From an uncultured Chlorobiaceae bacterium (GTDB taxonomy: Bacteria > Bacteroidota > Chlorobiia > Chlorobiales > Chlorobiaceae), in NCBI GenBank assembly GCA_903822595.1, contig CAIJPS010000107.1, positions 1 to 33,779 of the forward strand: 33,779 nt of DNA, given 5' to 3'. Positions 18,001 through 26,716 of the stretch are shown in pieces. Every line of letters begins with the position of its first letter. The stretch's first letter is position 1. A program made the translations under genes and the position numbers. Under the pieces are notes generated by a model. It made no database searches, was not told where the DNA came from, and saw only the letters and a list, made by a program, of their open reading frames with translations.

Positions 18001-18876
18001 ATGAATATTCTTGTTACGGGCAGCAGGGGTCAACTTGGTTCTGAGTTGCAGGAGCTCTCAACCCGCTCTGATAATCACCGTTTCTTTTTCTATGATCTTC
18101 CTGATCTCGATATTACTTCTCCTGATCGTGTTGCCGAACTTTGCCGAGAACATGAGATAGAGGTGATCATCAATTGTGCGGCATATACCGCTGTGGACAA
18201 GGCGGAATCGGATGTTGATCTGGCATTCAGGGTGAACCGGGATGGCGCGGCCGTGCTTGCGGCCTGTGCGAAAGAGCGCAATGCTCTTCTGGTGCATATT
18301 TCCACTGATTATGTTTTTAACGGCAGGTCAAATATTCCTTATCGGGAAACCGATCCCGCAACGCCGCTTGGTGTTTACGGTGTATCGAAATGGGAAGGGG
18401 AGGAGCGTATCCGCGATATTGCCCCCTCTCACTGGATTATCAGAACCTCCTGGCTCTATTCCATCTATGGCGCCAACTTTGTCAAGACCATGTTGCGTCT
18501 TGGTGCAGAGCGATCGACGCTGAACGTTGTGGCTGACCAGATTGGTACGCCGACGTGGGCGGCTGATCTTGCAGGCGCTCTTGTTTCGATGCTTGAGCGG
18601 TACGACAAGAATAACCGCTACGCAGGAAGCTATCATTATTCCAACGAAGGGGTCTGTTCGTGGTATGATTTTGCCCAGGCGATCATGGAGTTGGCTGAAC
18701 TGCCCTGCAGGGTGGTGCCGGTCGAAAGCAGTCAGTATCCCCAGATTGCAGCGAGGCCGCACTACAGTGTTCTGAACAAGTCGGCCATAAAGCAGGAGTG
18801 GAAGATTGAAATCTCGCACTGGCGGGTATCGCTGGCTGCCATGCTTGAGAAGTTGCAGCACGGAACGAAAGGATGA
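18001..18876 (+). CDS. rmlD: dTDP-4-dehydrorhamnose reductase
   Basis: A 291-aa extended SDR that reduces dTDP-4-keto-L-rhamnose to dTDP-L-rhamnose, the last pathway step. The dinucleotide motif is GSRGQLG (7-13). NCAAYTAVDKAE, the STDYVFNG segment (T102, D103) and YGVSK (Y126, K130) are the substrate and catalytic residues; RTSWLY and the C-terminal RPHYSVLNKS match RmlD. It is followed by rmlB, whose start is 46 bp downstream, so the two are surely co-transcribed. Confidence 0.96.
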   Translation: MNILVTGSRGQLGSELQELSTRSDNHRFFFYDLPDLDITSPDRVAELCREHEIEVIINCAAYTAVDKAESDVDLAFRVNRDGAAVLAACAKERNALLVHISTDYVFNGRSNIPYRETDPATPLGVYGVSKWEGEERIRDIAPSHWIIRTSWLYSIYGANFVKTMLRLGAERSTLNVVADQIGTPTWAADLAGALVSMLERYDKNNRYAGSYHYSNEGVCSWYDFAQAIMELAELPCRVVPVESSQYPQIAARPHYSVLNKSAIKQEWKIEISHWRVSLAAMLEKLQHGTKG

Positions 18877-18922
18877 GAGCGGGGGAGCCGGAAGTGTTAA
18901 CCATAATAAAACAGTTACGCTG

Positions 18923-19972
18923 ATGCATATTTTGATTACGGGAGGGGCAGGTTTTATCGGGTCGCACGTTGTCCGCCATTTCCTGAAGAGTTATCCCTCG
19001 TACACGATTACCAATCTTGACAAGTTGACCTATGCCGGAAACCTTGCCAATCTTCGCGATATTGAGAGCAATCCGAACTACCGGTTTGTCAAAGGGGATA
19101 TCACCGATGGTGATTTTCTGCTGCGGTTGTTTCAGGATAACCAGTTTGACGGAGTGGTTCATCTGGCGGCCGAGTCGCATGTTGACCGCTCGATTGCCAA
19201 TCCGACGGAATTTGTGGTGACCAATGTGCTTGGTACGGTCAATCTGCTTAATGCTGCCAAAGCCTCCTGGCAGGCTGATTATGATGGCAAGAGGTTCTAT
19301 CACATTTCAACCGATGAGGTTTATGGTTCGCTCGGAAATGAGGGGCTCTTTACCGAAGAGACTCCTTATGATCCTCACAGTCCTTATTCAGCGTCGAAAG
19401 CCTCTTCCGACCATTTTGTACGAGCGTATCACGATACTTTTGGTATCCCGGTCGTGATCAGCAACTGTTCAAACAATTATGGCTCGTTCCAGTTTCCGGA
19501 AAAGCTTATCCCTCTTTTCATCAACAATATCGTCAACCGCAAACCCCTTCCGGTTTATGGCAAGGGAGAGAACATTCGCGACTGGCTCTGGGTTGTTGAT
19601 CATGCGCAGGCGATTGATGTGATTTTTCATCAGGGGAAGAACGGTGAAACCTACAATATCGGCGGTCATAACGAGTGGAGCAACATCGACCTGATCAGGC
19701 TTCTTTGCCGGATCATGGATGGGAAGCTTGGTCGTCCTTCGGGAGAGTCAGAAACGCTTGTCACCTATGTGACGGACAGGGCGGGTCATGACCTTCGCTA
19801 TGCAATCGATTCATCGAAGCTGCAGCGCGAACTGGGATGGGTTCCCTCGATCTCCTTTGAAAAAGGGCTTGAACTGACGGTTGAATGGTATCTTTCGAAT
19901 GCGGAGTGGCTTGACGATGTAACCTCAGGCGGGTATCAGCGTTATTACGAAGAGATGTACGGCAATCGTTGA
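18923..19972 (+). CDS. rmlB: dTDP-glucose 4,6-dehydratase
   Basis: A 349-aa NAD-dependent dehydratase that makes dTDP-4-keto-6-deoxyglucose, the second step of rhamnose synthesis. It has GGAGFIG at 7-13, the catalytic T130-D131-E132 of STDEVYG, Y155 and K159 in YSASK, and the family block NCSNNYGSFQFPEKLIPL. The frame is open back to 18806, overlapping rmlD, but the ATG at 18923 gives MHILITGG, the normal N-terminus. Gene order here is A-C-(orf)-D-B, different from the enterobacterial B-D-A-C. Confidence 0.96.
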   Translation: MHILITGGAGFIGSHVVRHFLKSYPSYTITNLDKLTYAGNLANLRDIESNPNYRFVKGDITDGDFLLRLFQDNQFDGVVHLAAESHVDRSIANPTEFVVTNVLGTVNLLNAAKASWQADYDGKRFYHISTDEVYGSLGNEGLFTEETPYDPHSPYSASKASSDHFVRAYHDTFGIPVVISNCSNNYGSFQFPEKLIPLFINNIVNRKPLPVYGKGENIRDWLWVVDHAQAIDVIFHQGKNGETYNIGGHNEWSNIDLIRLLCRIMDGKLGRPSGESETLVTYVTDRAGHDLRYAIDSSKLQRELGWVPSISFEKGLELTVEWYLSNAEWLDDVTSGGYQRYYEEMYGNR

Positions 19973-20019
19973 GGGTGGATTGGCTGTTTGATTCATAACT
20001 ATTTGACAGGGTACTTGTT

Positions 20020-20997
20020 ATGCGAATTCTGGTTATCGGTGGTGCTGGCTATATCGGCAGCCATGTTGCAAGGGCATTTCTTGATCGTGGATATGAGGTT
20101 ACGGTCTTTGATAATTTGCAGACCGGACTGAGGGAGAATCTTTTTCGTGATGCCCGGTTTGTGTATGGAGATATCATGCGTCCCGAACAGTTGCGGGAGG
20201 TGATGGCCGAAGGGTTTGATGGATGTGTCCATCTTGCCGCCCTGAAAGCTGCCGGTCAGTCGATGCTGAAACCGGAGGCGTATACTGAAGCCAATATTGC
20301 CGGAACGATCAATATTCTCAACCAGGCGGCTGAGGCTGGATTATCGCCGATTATCTTCTCCTCTTCGGCTGCTGTCTATGGAAGTCCCCAATACCTGCCG
20401 ATTGATGAGGAGCATCCAAAAGAGCCGGAAAATTTTTATGGCTTTACCAAGCTTGAAATCGAGCGCCTGCTTGGCTGGTATGACCAGCTTAAAGGGATGC
20501 GTTTTGCTGCGATCCGTTATTTCAATGCTGCCGGTTATGATGTTGAGGGGCGGGTCAAGGGGCTTGAGCTGAACCCGGAGAACCTTTTACCGATTGTGAT
20601 GGAAGTGGCTGCCGGTATGCGTCCGAAACTTTCTATTTATGGCACTGATTACCCGACACGGGATGGAAGCTGCATCCGTGACTATGTTCACGTGACCGAC
20701 CTGGCGGAAGCGCATGTTGCTGCCTTTGAATATATTTTGCAGCATGACAAAAGCCTGACGGTGAATCTTGGAAGCCAGGCTGGTGTGACTGTTCTTGAAA
20801 TGGTTGAGCGGGCCCGCGCCATTATCGGCAGGGCTATTCCCGCAGAGATTGTTGGCAGGCGTGCTGGTGATCCTTCAGAGCTTGTGGCATCGTCCGGCAA
20901 GGCGCGTGAGCTTCTTGGATGGGTGCCGAAGTACAGCGATGTCAATACCCTTGTTTCCTCGACGTGGAAGATGTACGAGAAGTATATCACTTGTTAA
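20020..20997 (+). CDS. galE: UDP-glucose 4-epimerase
   Basis: A 325-aa extended SDR interconverting UDP-glucose and UDP-galactose. It has GGAGYIGSH (7-15), the DNLQTG NAD-binding turn, SSSAAVYG with the catalytic serine near 116, Y140 and K144 in YGFTK, RYFNAAG, and the DGSCIRDYVHV signature typical of GalE. It could also accept N-acetylated sugars; sequence reading does not decide this. It lies 47 bp after rmlB and 21 bp before manC, so it is part of the same operon-like run. Confidence 0.93.
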   Translation: MRILVIGGAGYIGSHVARAFLDRGYEVTVFDNLQTGLRENLFRDARFVYGDIMRPEQLREVMAEGFDGCVHLAALKAAGQSMLKPEAYTEANIAGTINILNQAAEAGLSPIIFSSSAAVYGSPQYLPIDEEHPKEPENFYGFTKLEIERLLGWYDQLKGMRFAAIRYFNAAGYDVEGRVKGLELNPENLLPIVMEVAAGMRPKLSIYGTDYPTRDGSCIRDYVHVTDLAEAHVAAFEYILQHDKSLTVNLGSQAGVTVLEMVERARAIIGRAIPAEIVGRRAGDPSELVASSGKARELLGWVPKYSDVNTLVSSTWKMYEKYITC

Positions 20998-21018
20998 TGT
21001 TAAACCTCCTTATTCTCC

Positions 21019-22434
21019 ATGATTATTCCTGTGATTCTCAGTGGCGGTTCGGGCACGAGGCTCTGGCCCCTTTCCCGTGCATTGTACCCCAAACAGTTGC
21101 TTTCGCTGATTGGAGAGAAGACCATGCTGCAGGAGACGGTGCTTCGCCTTGCGGCAACTGATGATATCGGTCCCGTCTATTGTGTCTGCAATGAGAGCCA
21201 TCGCTTTCTTGTAGCCGAGCAACTGCATGAGATTGATGTCAATATCGGGGAGATTATTCTCGAACCCAAAGGACGCAATACCGCTCCTGCCGCAGCCATT
21301 GCTGCAATGCTTGTCACTGAAAAGCATCCTGGAGCCATCATGTTGATCTTGCCTGCTGATCACGTCATTCTTGACACGCTGGCATTTGGTCTTGCTGTTG
21401 CCGCAGGAAAGTCTGCTGCCGAAGAGGGTGGGCTGGTCACGTTCGGTATTGTTCCGGCCTCTGCTGAAACCGGTTACGGCTATATCAGAGCATCAGTGCA
21501 GCCTGAAGGCGAAAAGGGCGCCTATCCAGTTGCTGAATTTGTCGAAAAGCCTGACAGGGAAACGGCGGAGCGCTATCTCGCTTCGGGTGACTATTTCTGG
21601 AACAGTGGCATTTTCCTTTTCAAAGCTGAGAGCTATCTTCTCGAGCTTGAAGCGCATGCTCCAGCTATTGTTGCCGCATGTCGGGAGGCGCTCGGGAAAG
21701 CTGTTGCAGATCTTGATTTTTTGCGGCTCGATAGTGAAGCGTTTTGTGCCTCTCCTTCCGACTCTATCGATTATGCTGTGATGGAAAAAACCACGAAGGC
21801 GGCTCTTGTCCCCCTCAATGCCGGATGGAATGATGTGGGTGCATGGTCTGCGCTCTGGGATGTGCAGGAGCGTGATGATGCAGGCAATGTAAAGAGGGGA
21901 GACGTGCTGGTGCACAATGTAAAGAATAGCTATATCCACGCTACAAGCCGCCTCGTCACTGCCGTTGGTCTTGATGGTTATATCATTGTTGAAACTGCCG
22001 ATGCCGTACTTGTTGCCTCACGGGATTCTGTTCAGGATGTCAAGGCGCTTGTCGAAGAGCTAAAAAAGAGAGAGCGGGATGAGGTTGAGATTCATCGTCG
22101 GGTTTACAGACCGTGGGGCACCTATGAAACCGTTGATTTTTCAGATCGGTTCAAGGTCAAGCGCATTACGGTAAATCCAGGTGCAGCATTGTCGCTGCAA
22201 AAACATCACTTTCGTGCCGAACATTGGGTTGTCGTTAAGGGAACAGCTCAGGTGACGGTGGGAGAGAAGAAAATTACACTCATTGAGGATCAGTCAACCT
22301 ATATTCCTGTCGGAGAGTTTCATCGCCTTGAAAATACCGGACAAACTCCGCTTGAACTGATCGAGGTTCAGTCAGGCAGTTACTTGGGGGAGGATGATAT
22401 TGTGCGTGTTGAGGATCGGTATGGACGTCAGTAA
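21019..22434 (+). CDS. manC: Mannose-1-phosphate guanylyltransferase / mannose-6-phosphate isomerase
   Basis: A 471-aa protein of the AlgA/ManC bifunctional family. The N-terminal nucleotidyltransferase has GGSGTRLWPLSR (9-20), PKQLL and FVEKPD; the C-terminal cupin domain (about 355-465) has RPWGTYETVD, PGAALSLQKHHFRAEHWVVV and the final GSYLGEDDIVR, the type II phosphomannose isomerase signature. It makes GDP-mannose from mannose-6-phosphate together with a phosphomannomutase not found in this window. It closes the nucleotide-sugar cluster; GDP-mannose can feed exopolysaccharide, LPS or GDP-fucose. Confidence 0.95.
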   Translation: MIIPVILSGGSGTRLWPLSRALYPKQLLSLIGEKTMLQETVLRLAATDDIGPVYCVCNESHRFLVAEQLHEIDVNIGEIILEPKGRNTAPAAAIAAMLVTEKHPGAIMLILPADHVILDTLAFGLAVAAGKSAAEEGGLVTFGIVPASAETGYGYIRASVQPEGEKGAYPVAEFVEKPDRETAERYLASGDYFWNSGIFLFKAESYLLELEAHAPAIVAACREALGKAVADLDFLRLDSEAFCASPSDSIDYAVMEKTTKAALVPLNAGWNDVGAWSALWDVQERDDAGNVKRGDVLVHNVKNSYIHATSRLVTAVGLDGYIIVETADAVLVASRDSVQDVKALVEELKKRERDEVEIHRRVYRPWGTYETVDFSDRFKVKRITVNPGAALSLQKHHFRAEHWVVVKGTAQVTVGEKKITLIEDQSTYIPVGEFHRLENTGQTPLELIEVQSGSYLGEDDIVRVEDRYGRQ

Positions 22435-22919: not shown

Positions 22920-22964
22920 TGCAGGCCATGCGCCTGTTTTTGATTGAATGATTTCGGAAGAACT

Positions 22965-25900
22965 ATGGACGCTAAATTTGTCGAGTATCCCTCAAATGTG
23001 CCCTACAGTGCTGTAGAGGCGGAAGTTTTGGCATATTGGAATGAACATGGGATTTTTCGCAAGAGCCTTGAAGAAAAACCAGGTGATCGGGTTTACTCGT
23101 TTTATGAAGGTCCACCAACGGTTAACGGCAAGCCGGGTGTTCACCATGTCTTCAGCCGTACCATAAAGGATGTTGTTTGCCGTTACAAGACCATGCAGGG
23201 GTACCGGGTGCCGCGCAAGGCGGGATGGGATACGCATGGATTGCCGGTAGAGATTTCCGTTGAAAAGAAGCTTGGCCTGAAGAACAAGGCACAGGTTGTT
23301 GCCTATGGCGATGGCGAATTTAATGCCGAGGCCAAGGCGCTGGTTTATCATCATATTGACGATAATCGTGAAGGGTGGGGAAAGCTGACCGAGCGGATGG
23401 GATACTGGGTCGATATGGAGCATCCCTACATTACCTGTACCAATGATTATATCGAGTCGGTCTGGTGGGCACTGAAAACAATCTTCGATAAAGGACTCAT
23501 CTACAAGGATTATAAAATTGTGCCGCAGGATCCCAAGTCCGAGACGGTACTCAGTTCGCATGAGCTTGCCTTGGGCTATAAAGAGGTGACCGATCCAAGC
23601 ATTTATGTGAAATTCCGGATCAAGGATTCTGATGAGTCTCTGCTGGTATGGACGACGACACCGTGGACCTTGATTTCGAATGTGGCGCTGTGTGTTGGTA
23701 CGGATATTGATTACGTCAAGGTTGCTCATAGCGAGAGCGGAGAGGTGATGATTCTTGCCAAGTCGCGCCTGCATGTCCTGCTTGAGAAGAACGATGCTGG
23801 TGAGTCGCTCTGGACGGTTATTGCTGAACTGAAAGGACGAGATTTGGAGGGGCTCGACTATGAGCCGCTGTTCAGCTACATGCATCCTGAAAAGAGGTGC
23901 TGGTATGTTACCGCAGGCTCTTTTGTGTCAACCGAAGATGGTACCGGTATTGTTCATATTGCCCCGGCTTTCGGAGCTGATGACTATGAAATTGCTAAAA
24001 AATATGATCTGCCGATGCTCCAGCCGGTTGGCCGGAACGGCTGCTTTACGGCCGAGGTCAGCGATTATGAGGGCATGTTTTTCAAGGATACCGATCCGCG
24101 CGTAATCCGTCAACTCAAGGATGCGGGAAAATTGTACCGCAAGGAGATGATTACCCATACTTACCCTTATTCATGGCGTTATGATGTTCCGGTGATCTAT
24201 TATGCGCGGGAGTCGTGGTATATCAGGACAACGGCTATTGCTGAACGTATGGTAGAGCTCAACAAAACCATCAACTGGTGCCCTCCCGAGATTGGTAGCG
24301 GGCGTTTCGGTAACTGGCTTGAGGATAACAAGGACTGGGCGCTTTCACGCGAGCGTTTCTGGGGTTCACCACTGCCGCTTTGGGTTTCGGAGGATTTTGT
24401 CATTGGTGACGATGCCGCCTCAGGCAAAATGTTTGCGGTTGGTTCAGTGGCAGAACTGCGTGAAGGATTTATTGATATTGATGGGCTGCAGTGCGGGCTC
24501 GGTGATGCGCTCGACAGGGGAGCGGTGGAGCTTGATCTGCACAAACCTTTTGTAGACAGTATTTACTTCATAAGGGATGGCAAACGTTTCAACCGTACAC
24601 CCGAGCTGGTTGATGTCTGGTTCGACAGTGGCTCCATGCCGTTTGCCCAATTGCACTACCCATTTGAGCACCGTGAAGAGTTTGATGCTTCATTCCCAGC
24701 CGATTTCATTGCTGAAGGGGTCGATCAGACCAGAGGGTGGTTCTATACCCTGCACGCCATTGCCACGCTTATTTTTGATAAGCCAGCATATAAAAACCTT
24801 ATTGTAAACGGCCATATTCTTGATAAAAGTGGCCAGAAAATGTCGAAGTCAAAAGGTAATGTGGTTGATCCTTTTGAGACGATGGAGCGCTATGGTGCCG
24901 ATGCTCTTCGCTGGTACCTGATGGTCACCAGCCCTCCCTGGAGGCCGAAATCCTTTAACAGTGATGAGATTGAGGAGGAGCAACGCAAGTTTTTCCGCGC
25001 CTTCATCAACAGTTATAACTTTTTTGTGCTCTATGCCAATGTTGATCACTTTACCTTTGCTGAATCCGTAATTCCTGTTCATGAGCGTTCCGAACTTGAC
25101 CGCTGGGTGCTCTCCTGCCTGAACACGCTTGTTGACGGTGTTCATCTGCGTATGGAGCAGTATGACCTTACCGGAGCAGTAAGACTGATCAACGATTTTA
25201 CCGTTGATGATCTTTCAAACTGGTATATCCGTCGTTCACGAAAACGGTTCTGGAAAAGTGATATGGGGCCGGATAAGATTGCCGCCTATCAGACGCTCTA
25301 CAGCGCTCTCGAGACGCTTTCAAAACTGCTTGCTCCCTTTACTCCGTTCCTTGCCGAGCGGATTTACCTGAACCTGAACGGAATCAGCGGGCTCGAATCC
25401 TTTGAATCTGTTCATCTTGCAGATTTTCCCGTGCTGGATATTTCAGCTATTGACCGGCCGCTTGAGCAACGTATGAAAAAGGCACAGATTATTACCTCGC
25501 TCGTGCGAACCATGCGCGAAAAGGCATCTATCAAGGTACGTCAGCCGCTTAAACGTATTCTGCTTGCTGTTGGTGATGCTGCCGCGAGGGAAGAGTATCG
25601 TCAGGTTGGCGATATCATTATGGAGGAGATCAATGTCCAGAAGATAGAGTATATCGAGGAGGAGGGCTCGGTCATCAGCAAGAAGGTAAAGCCAAACTTC
25701 AAAACCCTTGGTCCCCGTTTTGGCAAGGAGATGAAAGCGCTGGCGGAAGCCATCAGGATTATGAGTCATAAACAGATTGCGCTTCTTGAAAAACAGGGCC
25801 AACTCTCACTTGAACTCGATGGAAAGATTTTTGAAATTCTGCGTGAGGATGTCGATATCATGCACGAGGATATCGAGGGGTGGCTGGTAGCATCCGATGA

Positions 25901-26222
25901 AGCGCACGGGATCATGGTTGCACTCGATACAGAGATGACTGAAGAGCTTGAGATGCAGGGCCTGTCGCGTGAATTGGTTAGCCGTATCCAGGCGCTTCGC
26001 AAGGAGAGTGGCCTCGATATTACTGATCGCATCGCGCTCTCTATTCAGGGTTCAGAAAAAGTGCTTGAGGCTGTTAAGGGCAATGAAGCCTATATCAAAG
26101 CGGAAACGCTTGCCATGATACTTGCTGTTGCAACGCTTGACCACTCCTCCGCAGCAAAGTGGAAAAATGAGACGATCAATGGGGAAATATGCAGGTTATT
26201 GCTTGAAAAATATGAGCGTTAA
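22965..26222 (+). CDS. ileS: Isoleucyl-tRNA synthetase (IleRS2 type)
   Basis: A 1085-aa class I synthetase that charges tRNA-Ile. The length and the long C-terminal part fit the eukaryotic-like IleRS2 subgroup. It shows [16 protein letters not shown], where the HIGH motif is replaced by GVHH (58-61); WDTHGLPVE; an editing domain with VWTTTPWTL and the later [12 protein letters not shown]; WVLSREx-like [10 protein letters not shown]; and KMSKS at 625-629. The ATG at 22965 has GGAAGAA before it and is better than the TTG at 22944. GXHH-type IleRS2 enzymes are reported to be highly resistant to mupirocin. No second ileS is visible in the window. Confidence 0.96.
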
Positions 26223-26269
26223 TAGTATTATTCGACTCTTTGTTTTTACAGCATTCTGTTAGTATTAAA

Positions 26270-26716
26270 ATGTCTGATATTATGGCGAAAAAAAACGGCA
26301 ATGCTTCCAAAAAGGACAATGAGGTTATGGAAGAACCTGTCCTGACAAAAACCTATCTAACCGATGAAGAACTTGAGCATTTTAAGCTATTGTTGCTGAA
26401 AAGGCGTGAAGAGGTGCTTCGTGATCTGGATATTCTGCGCTCTTCGCTTTCGGACGAAAATGTGGAAGACTCCATTAATTCCAACTACTCCATGCACATG
26501 GCCGATCACGGGACCGATACCATGGATCGCGAGCAGCGCTTCATGTTTATCGCCCGGGATGAAAAATATATCGGCTATATCGATCAGGCCCTTGACCGGA
26601 TACGGAACAAGGTCTATGGTATCTGTATCAAATCCGGCAAACCTATTCCGAAAAAGCGGCTTGAAGCGGTGCCGCACACCTCGGTCAGAATCGAGTTCAA
26701 GCAGGGGAAAAAGTAA
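26270..26716 (+). CDS. DksA/TraR-family regulator with degenerate zinc finger
   Basis: A 149-aa protein with a lysine-rich N-terminus, a coiled coil (about 35-70, ELEHFKLLLLKRREEVLRDL) and the family end VYGICIKSGKPIPKKRLEAV. DksA-type proteins bind the RNA polymerase secondary channel and act with ppGpp. Only one of the four zinc-finger cysteines remains (in GIC); the others are replaced (KSG and SVRIEF), so zinc is probably not bound. Similar cysteine-poor forms are usual in Bacteroidota/Chlorobiota. The start is uncertain: ATG at 26270 or 26282 (MAKKNG); the frame is open to a TTG at 26240, and none has a clear ribosome site. It lies 47 bp after ileS. Confidence 0.85.
   Translation: MSDIMAKKNGNASKKDNEVMEEPVLTKTYLTDEELEHFKLLLLKRREEVLRDLDILRSSLSDENVEDSINSNYSMHMADHGTDTMDREQRFMFIARDEKYIGYIDQALDRIRNKVYGICIKSGKPIPKKRLEAVPHTSVRIEFKQGKK

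What the first reader, a model, noticed from the sequence alone, without database searches (positions are those of the whole stretch)
23136..23147. IleRS2 with swapped GVHH signature motif
The class I HIGH motif is expected as H-x-G-H. Here the sequence reads GKPGVHHV, i.e. G-V-H-H, with first and third positions exchanged. I recall that GXHH IleRS2 enzymes have been described as hyper-resistant to mupirocin. A photosynthetic anaerobe carrying it as its apparent housekeeping enzyme is worth noting.
Basis: partly seen in the sequence, partly recalled or inferred. Interest (0 to 1): 0.62.

Follow-up and report, generated by a model that had tools for sequence, protein, structure and literature searches.

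The report
Ordinary phylum-wide GXHH isoleucyl-tRNA synthetase 2
A green sulfur bacterium (Chlorobium) uses, as its only isoleucine-charging enzyme, a known 'type 2' form whose signature motif has two positions swapped; this form is already linked to extreme mupirocin tolerance, and nearly every relative in the phylum carries it, so it is real but ordinary.

Summary
Window 23136-23147 (+) encodes Gly-Val-His-His, residues 58-61 of a 1085-aa isoleucyl-tRNA synthetase (22965-26222). Alignment places it without gaps on the class I HIGH motif. The closest solved structure is the engineered GVHH mutant of Priestia megaterium IleRS2 (8c8w). Domain content and signature motifs mark it as IleRS2. It is the only ileS found in the 97.6%-complete genome.

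Brkic et al. 2023 (PMC10485003) described the G/AXHH motif in 86 IleRS2 enzymes and linked it to mM-range mupirocin Ki values by motif swaps.

My census shows the motif is not peculiar to this photosynthetic anaerobe. 388 of 394 sampled genomes of the same GTDB phylum match a GXHH pattern and none match the canonical version. Two of the six non-matches also carry GVHH when read; in the other four the N-terminal region was not found in incomplete assemblies. The motif is therefore most likely an ancestral housekeeping state of the phylum, not a recent resistance acquisition.

Mupirocin tolerance of this enzyme is inferred from homologues, not measured. Interest is low.

The parts
22965..26222 (+). 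ileS encoding isoleucyl-tRNA synthetase type 2 (IleRS2), 1085 aa; ATG preceded by GGAAG; the ORF list's TTG at 22944 is only the mechanical longest start
   Evidence: TIGR00392 E 9e-286, 950 bits over cut-off 621; only locus over the cut-off in the genome
23136..23147 (+). GVHH, residues 58-61, at the class I HIGH (HXGH) signature position with positions 1 and 3 swapped
   Evidence: gapless alignment to HVGH of 1ile and 8c8u and to GVHH of 8c8w; multiple alignment with IleRS1 and IleRS2
23355..23366 (+). four-residue insertion (IDDN, residues 131-134) relative to P. megaterium and T. thermophilus IleRS2, directly after the helix alpha2 segment and three residues before Trp138 (= Trp130 of P. 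megaterium IleRS2)
   Evidence: alignments; present in 51 loci of the window's order, absent in 61 other loci of the phylum, one residue shorter in one
24654..24668 (+). HYPFE motif (residues 564-568), marker of eukaryote-like IleRS2
   Evidence: sequence; motif defined in PMC4861432
24837..24851 (+). KMSKS, second class I signature motif (residues 625-629), intact
25098..25556 (+). anticodon-binding domain (PF08264)
   Evidence: E 1e-32
25611..26210 (+). C-terminal DUF5915 domain (PF19302)
   Evidence: E 2e-53

Best explanation
This is the single housekeeping isoleucyl-tRNA synthetase of a Chlorobium-like green sulfur bacterium, a type 2 enzyme with the natural GXHH form of the HIGH motif. 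By homology with the crystallised P. megaterium GVHH mutant, the third-position histidine (His60) takes over the catalytic contact normally made by the first histidine. The active-site shift typical of IleRS2 makes room for it beside the ATP adenine, while the same side chain clashes with mupirocin. The enzyme should therefore charge tRNA-Ile normally and tolerate mupirocin with a Ki in the high micromolar to millimolar range. The motif was inherited from the ancestor of the phylum rather than acquired recently. Shown here: identity, motif position, sole copy found, phylum-wide conservation. Inferred: catalytic role of His60 and mupirocin tolerance.
For: IleRS equivalog match; IleRS2 domain set and HYPFE motif; best solved-structure match is the GVHH mutant 8c8w, aligned through the motif; only one ileS in the genome, the other hits being partial, below cut-off and consistent with related class I synthetases; GXHH in 388/394 phylum genomes plus 2 more on reading, HXGH in 0/394; all sampled phylum members form one supported group with a uniform motif, tree built without the motif columns; biochemistry and structures of GXHH IleRS2 in PMC10485003 and of S. 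griseus IleRS2, Ki 10 mM (PMC4861432).
Against: No Chlorobium IleRS2 assay was found in the papers searched. The GVHH swap in the two canonical enzymes tested gave Ki 35 and 460 uM, well below the mM values of natural G/AXHH enzymes, so the motif alone does not fix the level. The genome is a 109-contig draft at 97.6% completeness, so a second ileS cannot be wholly excluded.
Confidence: 0.93

Rival explanations
1. The enzyme is a secondary, acquired resistance copy (like plasmid MupA) and another IleRS does the housekeeping.
For: IleRS2 genes do occur as second copies and on plasmids; MupA/MupB models match at E ~1e-250 and plasmid ileS2 genes are common.
Against: MupA and MupB scores (about 835 bits) are far below their 1900-bit cut-offs. 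No other ileS over cut-off in the genome. The gene tree groups it with relatives of its own genus and order, and it sits beside a TraR/DksA zinc-finger gene, as does ileS of Parabacteroides.
Confidence: 0.03
2. The GVHH motif is a catalytic defect or a sequencing error.
For: Mutation of the first histidine in other class I enzymes lowers the activation rate about 1000-fold (stated in PMC10485003).
Against: Same motif in essentially all readable relatives in independent assemblies; the natural ALHH enzyme of D. radiodurans is fully active; ORF intact with KMSKS and all domains.
Confidence: 0.01
3. The motif was fixed in this particular lineage by selection from mupirocin-like antibiotics in its own habitat.
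For: The motif confers hyper-resistance, and the authors of PMC10485003 propose antibiotic selection.
Against: The motif is uniform across phototrophic anaerobes, Ignavibacteria, and gut and marine Bacteroidia, so it most likely predates this organism's habitat; selection could then only have acted on a distant ancestor.
Confidence: 0.05

Closest known systems
Non-canonical G/AXHH IleRS2, e.g. Streptomyces griseus IleRS2 and Deinococcus radiodurans IleRS2 (ALHH), PMC10485003
   Same: Type 2 IleRS with first and third positions of HXGH swapped
   Different: Chlorobium enzyme not assayed; carries GVHH rather than the ALHH of D. radiodurans; has a four-residue insertion near helix alpha2 that most phylum relatives lack
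Priestia megaterium IleRS2 (PDB 8c8u wild type HVGH, 8c8w GVHH mutant)
   Same: Best solved match; near full-length alignment; GVHH of the mutant identical at the motif
   Different: Wild type is HVGH; GVHH there is engineered and costs activity
Thermus thermophilus IleRS2 (1ile, 1jzq, 1jzs)
   Same: IleRS2 with HYPFE and KMSKS
   Different: HVGH motif, described as a reversion; Ki 0.2 uM
MupA / MupB (NF000257, NF000258)
   Same: Related mupirocin-resistant IleRS enzymes
   Different: Score less than half of the family cut-off; not a member

Membership tests
Isoleucyl-tRNA synthetase (TIGR00392) | score above curated equivalog cut-off | tested here: met
   950 bits against 621
Type 2 (eukaryote-like) IleRS | HYPFE motif; no IleRS1 GPPY tyrosine and no NKIL after the HIGH motif | tested here: met
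   HYPFE at 564-568, GPPT in place of GPPY, SRT in place of the IleRS1 NK residues (definitions)
Type 2 (eukaryote-like) IleRS | type 2 C-terminal domain | tested here: met
   DUF5915 PF19302, residues 883-1082; alignment to P. megaterium IleRS2 up to residue 1055
Non-canonical G/AXHH IleRS2 | G or A, X, H, H at the HIGH position with KMSKS kept | tested here: met
   GVHH 58-61 and KMSKS 625-629
Non-canonical G/AXHH IleRS2 | mupirocin hyper-resistance (Ki far above that of HXGH IleRS2) | not testable with these tools
   needs purified enzyme and an ATP/PPi exchange assay
MupA / MupB resistance enzymes | score above exception cut-off of 1900 bits | tested here: not met
   835 and 834 bits

The most novel reading that the evidence does not exclude
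GXHH is fixed as the ancestral housekeeping state across the whole GTDB phylum (Bacteroidia, Ignavibacteria, Chlorobia), with no canonical exception among readable genomes. That implies the entire phylum is intrinsically hyper-resistant to mupirocin and that the motif is kept for a reason other than present-day antibiotic exposure, for example co-adaptation of the IleRS2 active site that makes reversion costly.
Probability: 0.45. Interest if true: 0.3.

Novelty: new member of a known kind. Interest (0 to 1): 0.13.

Why it matters
It confirms that a catalytic-motif swap once thought intolerable is the housekeeping form across a major bacterial phylum. [quoted passage not shown] It does not reveal a new system.

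Tried and rejected
Looked for a second ileS in the genome: none over cut-off; the other hits are partial class I synthetase matches. Checked the six pattern-negative genomes: two carry DGPP...GVHH, which my Glu-anchored pattern missed; in the other four the N-terminal region was not recovered in incomplete assemblies. Asked whether the four-residue insertion near helix alpha2 is the adaptation that allows GXHH: rejected, since most GXHH relatives outside the window's order lack it. Tested the motif as a bare 12-base pattern: not significant on its own. Zanki 2022 was not held. Structure prediction was not run because a solved homologue with the same motif exists.

Full report
Observation. The window's ORF at 22965-26222 (+) translates to a 1085-residue protein with GVHH at residues 58-61, bases 23136-23147. 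NCBIfam calls it isoleucine--tRNA ligase with 950 bits against a cut-off of 621. Pfam shows the class I catalytic domain, the anticodon-binding domain and a C-terminal DUF5915.

Motif position. In a search of solved structures the top hit for the full protein is 8c8w, the GVHH form of Priestia megaterium IleRS2, followed by the other P. megaterium IleRS2 entries; those whose alignments were printed carry HVGH. With the first 200 residues as query, T. thermophilus IleRS2 (HVGH) ranks first and again aligns without a gap through the motif. A multiple alignment with IleRS1 enzymes puts GVHH opposite HLGH, HMGH and HIGH. So this is the HIGH site. The tetrapeptide pattern by itself would not be remarkable.

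Type. Against the IleRS1/IleRS2 markers given in PMC4861432, the protein has HYPFE (564-568), lacks the IleRS1 tyrosine of GPPY, and has a type 2 C-terminal domain. It also has His617 at the place of PmIleRS2 His582, which replaces the mupirocin-stacking Phe586 of IleRS1 (alignment, residues named). It is an IleRS2. It is not MupA or MupB.

Copy number. A whole-genome search found one locus over the ileS cut-off. The remaining hits are partial, far below cut-off, and consistent with the related valine, leucine and methionine enzymes (the identity of those three is my inference from length and match pattern). The genome is 97.6% complete in 109 contigs. Its nearest named relatives are Chlorobium and uncultured Chlorobiaceae.

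What is known. Brkic et al. 2023 (PMC10485003) analysed 379 IleRS sequences. They found 86 IleRS2 with G/AXHH, measured Ki 6.6 mM for D. radiodurans IleRS2 (ALHH), and moved Ki by two to three orders of magnitude through motif swaps. They also solved structures showing the third His taking the role of the first. S. griseus IleRS2 has Ki 10 mM (PMC4861432) and the same kind of motif. Their main text does not mention Chlorobi; I could not read the source data to see whether the phylum is in their tree.

How widespread. All 110 loci from Chlorobiaceae, Ignavibacteria and Bacteroidia whose motif region aligned carry GXHH. A 42-base degenerate pattern for E-G-P-P-x-x-N-G-x-P-G-x-H-H matched 388 of 394 genomes drawn from the phylum, 168 of 170 genera. 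The same pattern with H-x-G-H matched none. Of the six non-matches, G005 and G023 have D-G-P-P followed by GVHH. In G288, G323, G334 and G350 the N-terminal region was not found; all four are drafts at 81-88% completeness. Every genome in which the motif could be read has GXHH.

Tree. A quick maximum-likelihood tree without the motif columns groups all sampled phylum members together (SH-aLRT 98), with the window enzyme inside its own genus and order. HXGH and GXHH need at least two changes over this small set; direction cannot be read from it. Long outgroup branches and few rows from outside the phylum limit what it says beyond the phylum.

A small structural note. The window enzyme has four extra residues (131-134) next to the helix alpha2 segment discussed in PMC10485003. 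The insertion is present in the window's order and absent from most other GXHH relatives in the phylum. It is a lineage marker, not a requirement for the swapped motif.

Mechanism. Shown: identity, motif, single copy found, conservation. Inferred from homologues: His60 replaces the first His in catalysis; the IleRS2-specific shift of the motif accommodates it; its side chain clashes with mupirocin. Not tested: any kinetic or growth property of this organism.

Verdict. A correct observation with a correct, already published interpretation, in an organism where it is the rule rather than the exception. Interest is low.

Noticed in passing
window 23355-23366: Four-residue insertion next to helix alpha2 in IleRS2, found in the window's order and not in most other members of the phylum.
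   Followed up: partly
window 26240-26716: TraR/DksA-type zinc-finger gene directly downstream of ileS; the same gene order (ileS, TraR/DksA, then lipoprotein signal peptidase) occurs in Parabacteroides (L167).
   Followed up: partly
L167 (NZ_OY725767.1, Parabacteroides distasonis): A full ileS with chromosome-like neighbours is listed on a 47-kb circular 'plasmid' near a site-specific integrase; it may be an excised or misassembled chromosomal piece. Other Bacteroidota plasmid records also list ileS.
   Followed up: no
G115:C1:40856-44152 and G115:C10:549-752: One genome of the phylum has two GXHH ileS matches, one full-length and one a 205-aa N-terminal frame near a contig start.
   Followed up: partly
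L168 (MT835484.1): An unverified faecal 'bacteriophage' scaffold encodes a near full-length IleRS relative (44% identity); probably bacterial DNA.
   Followed up: no
window 18001-22434: Run of nucleotide-sugar genes: RmlD-like, GDP-mannose dehydratase-like, epimerase, and mannose-1-phosphate guanylyltransferase/isomerase.
   Followed up: no
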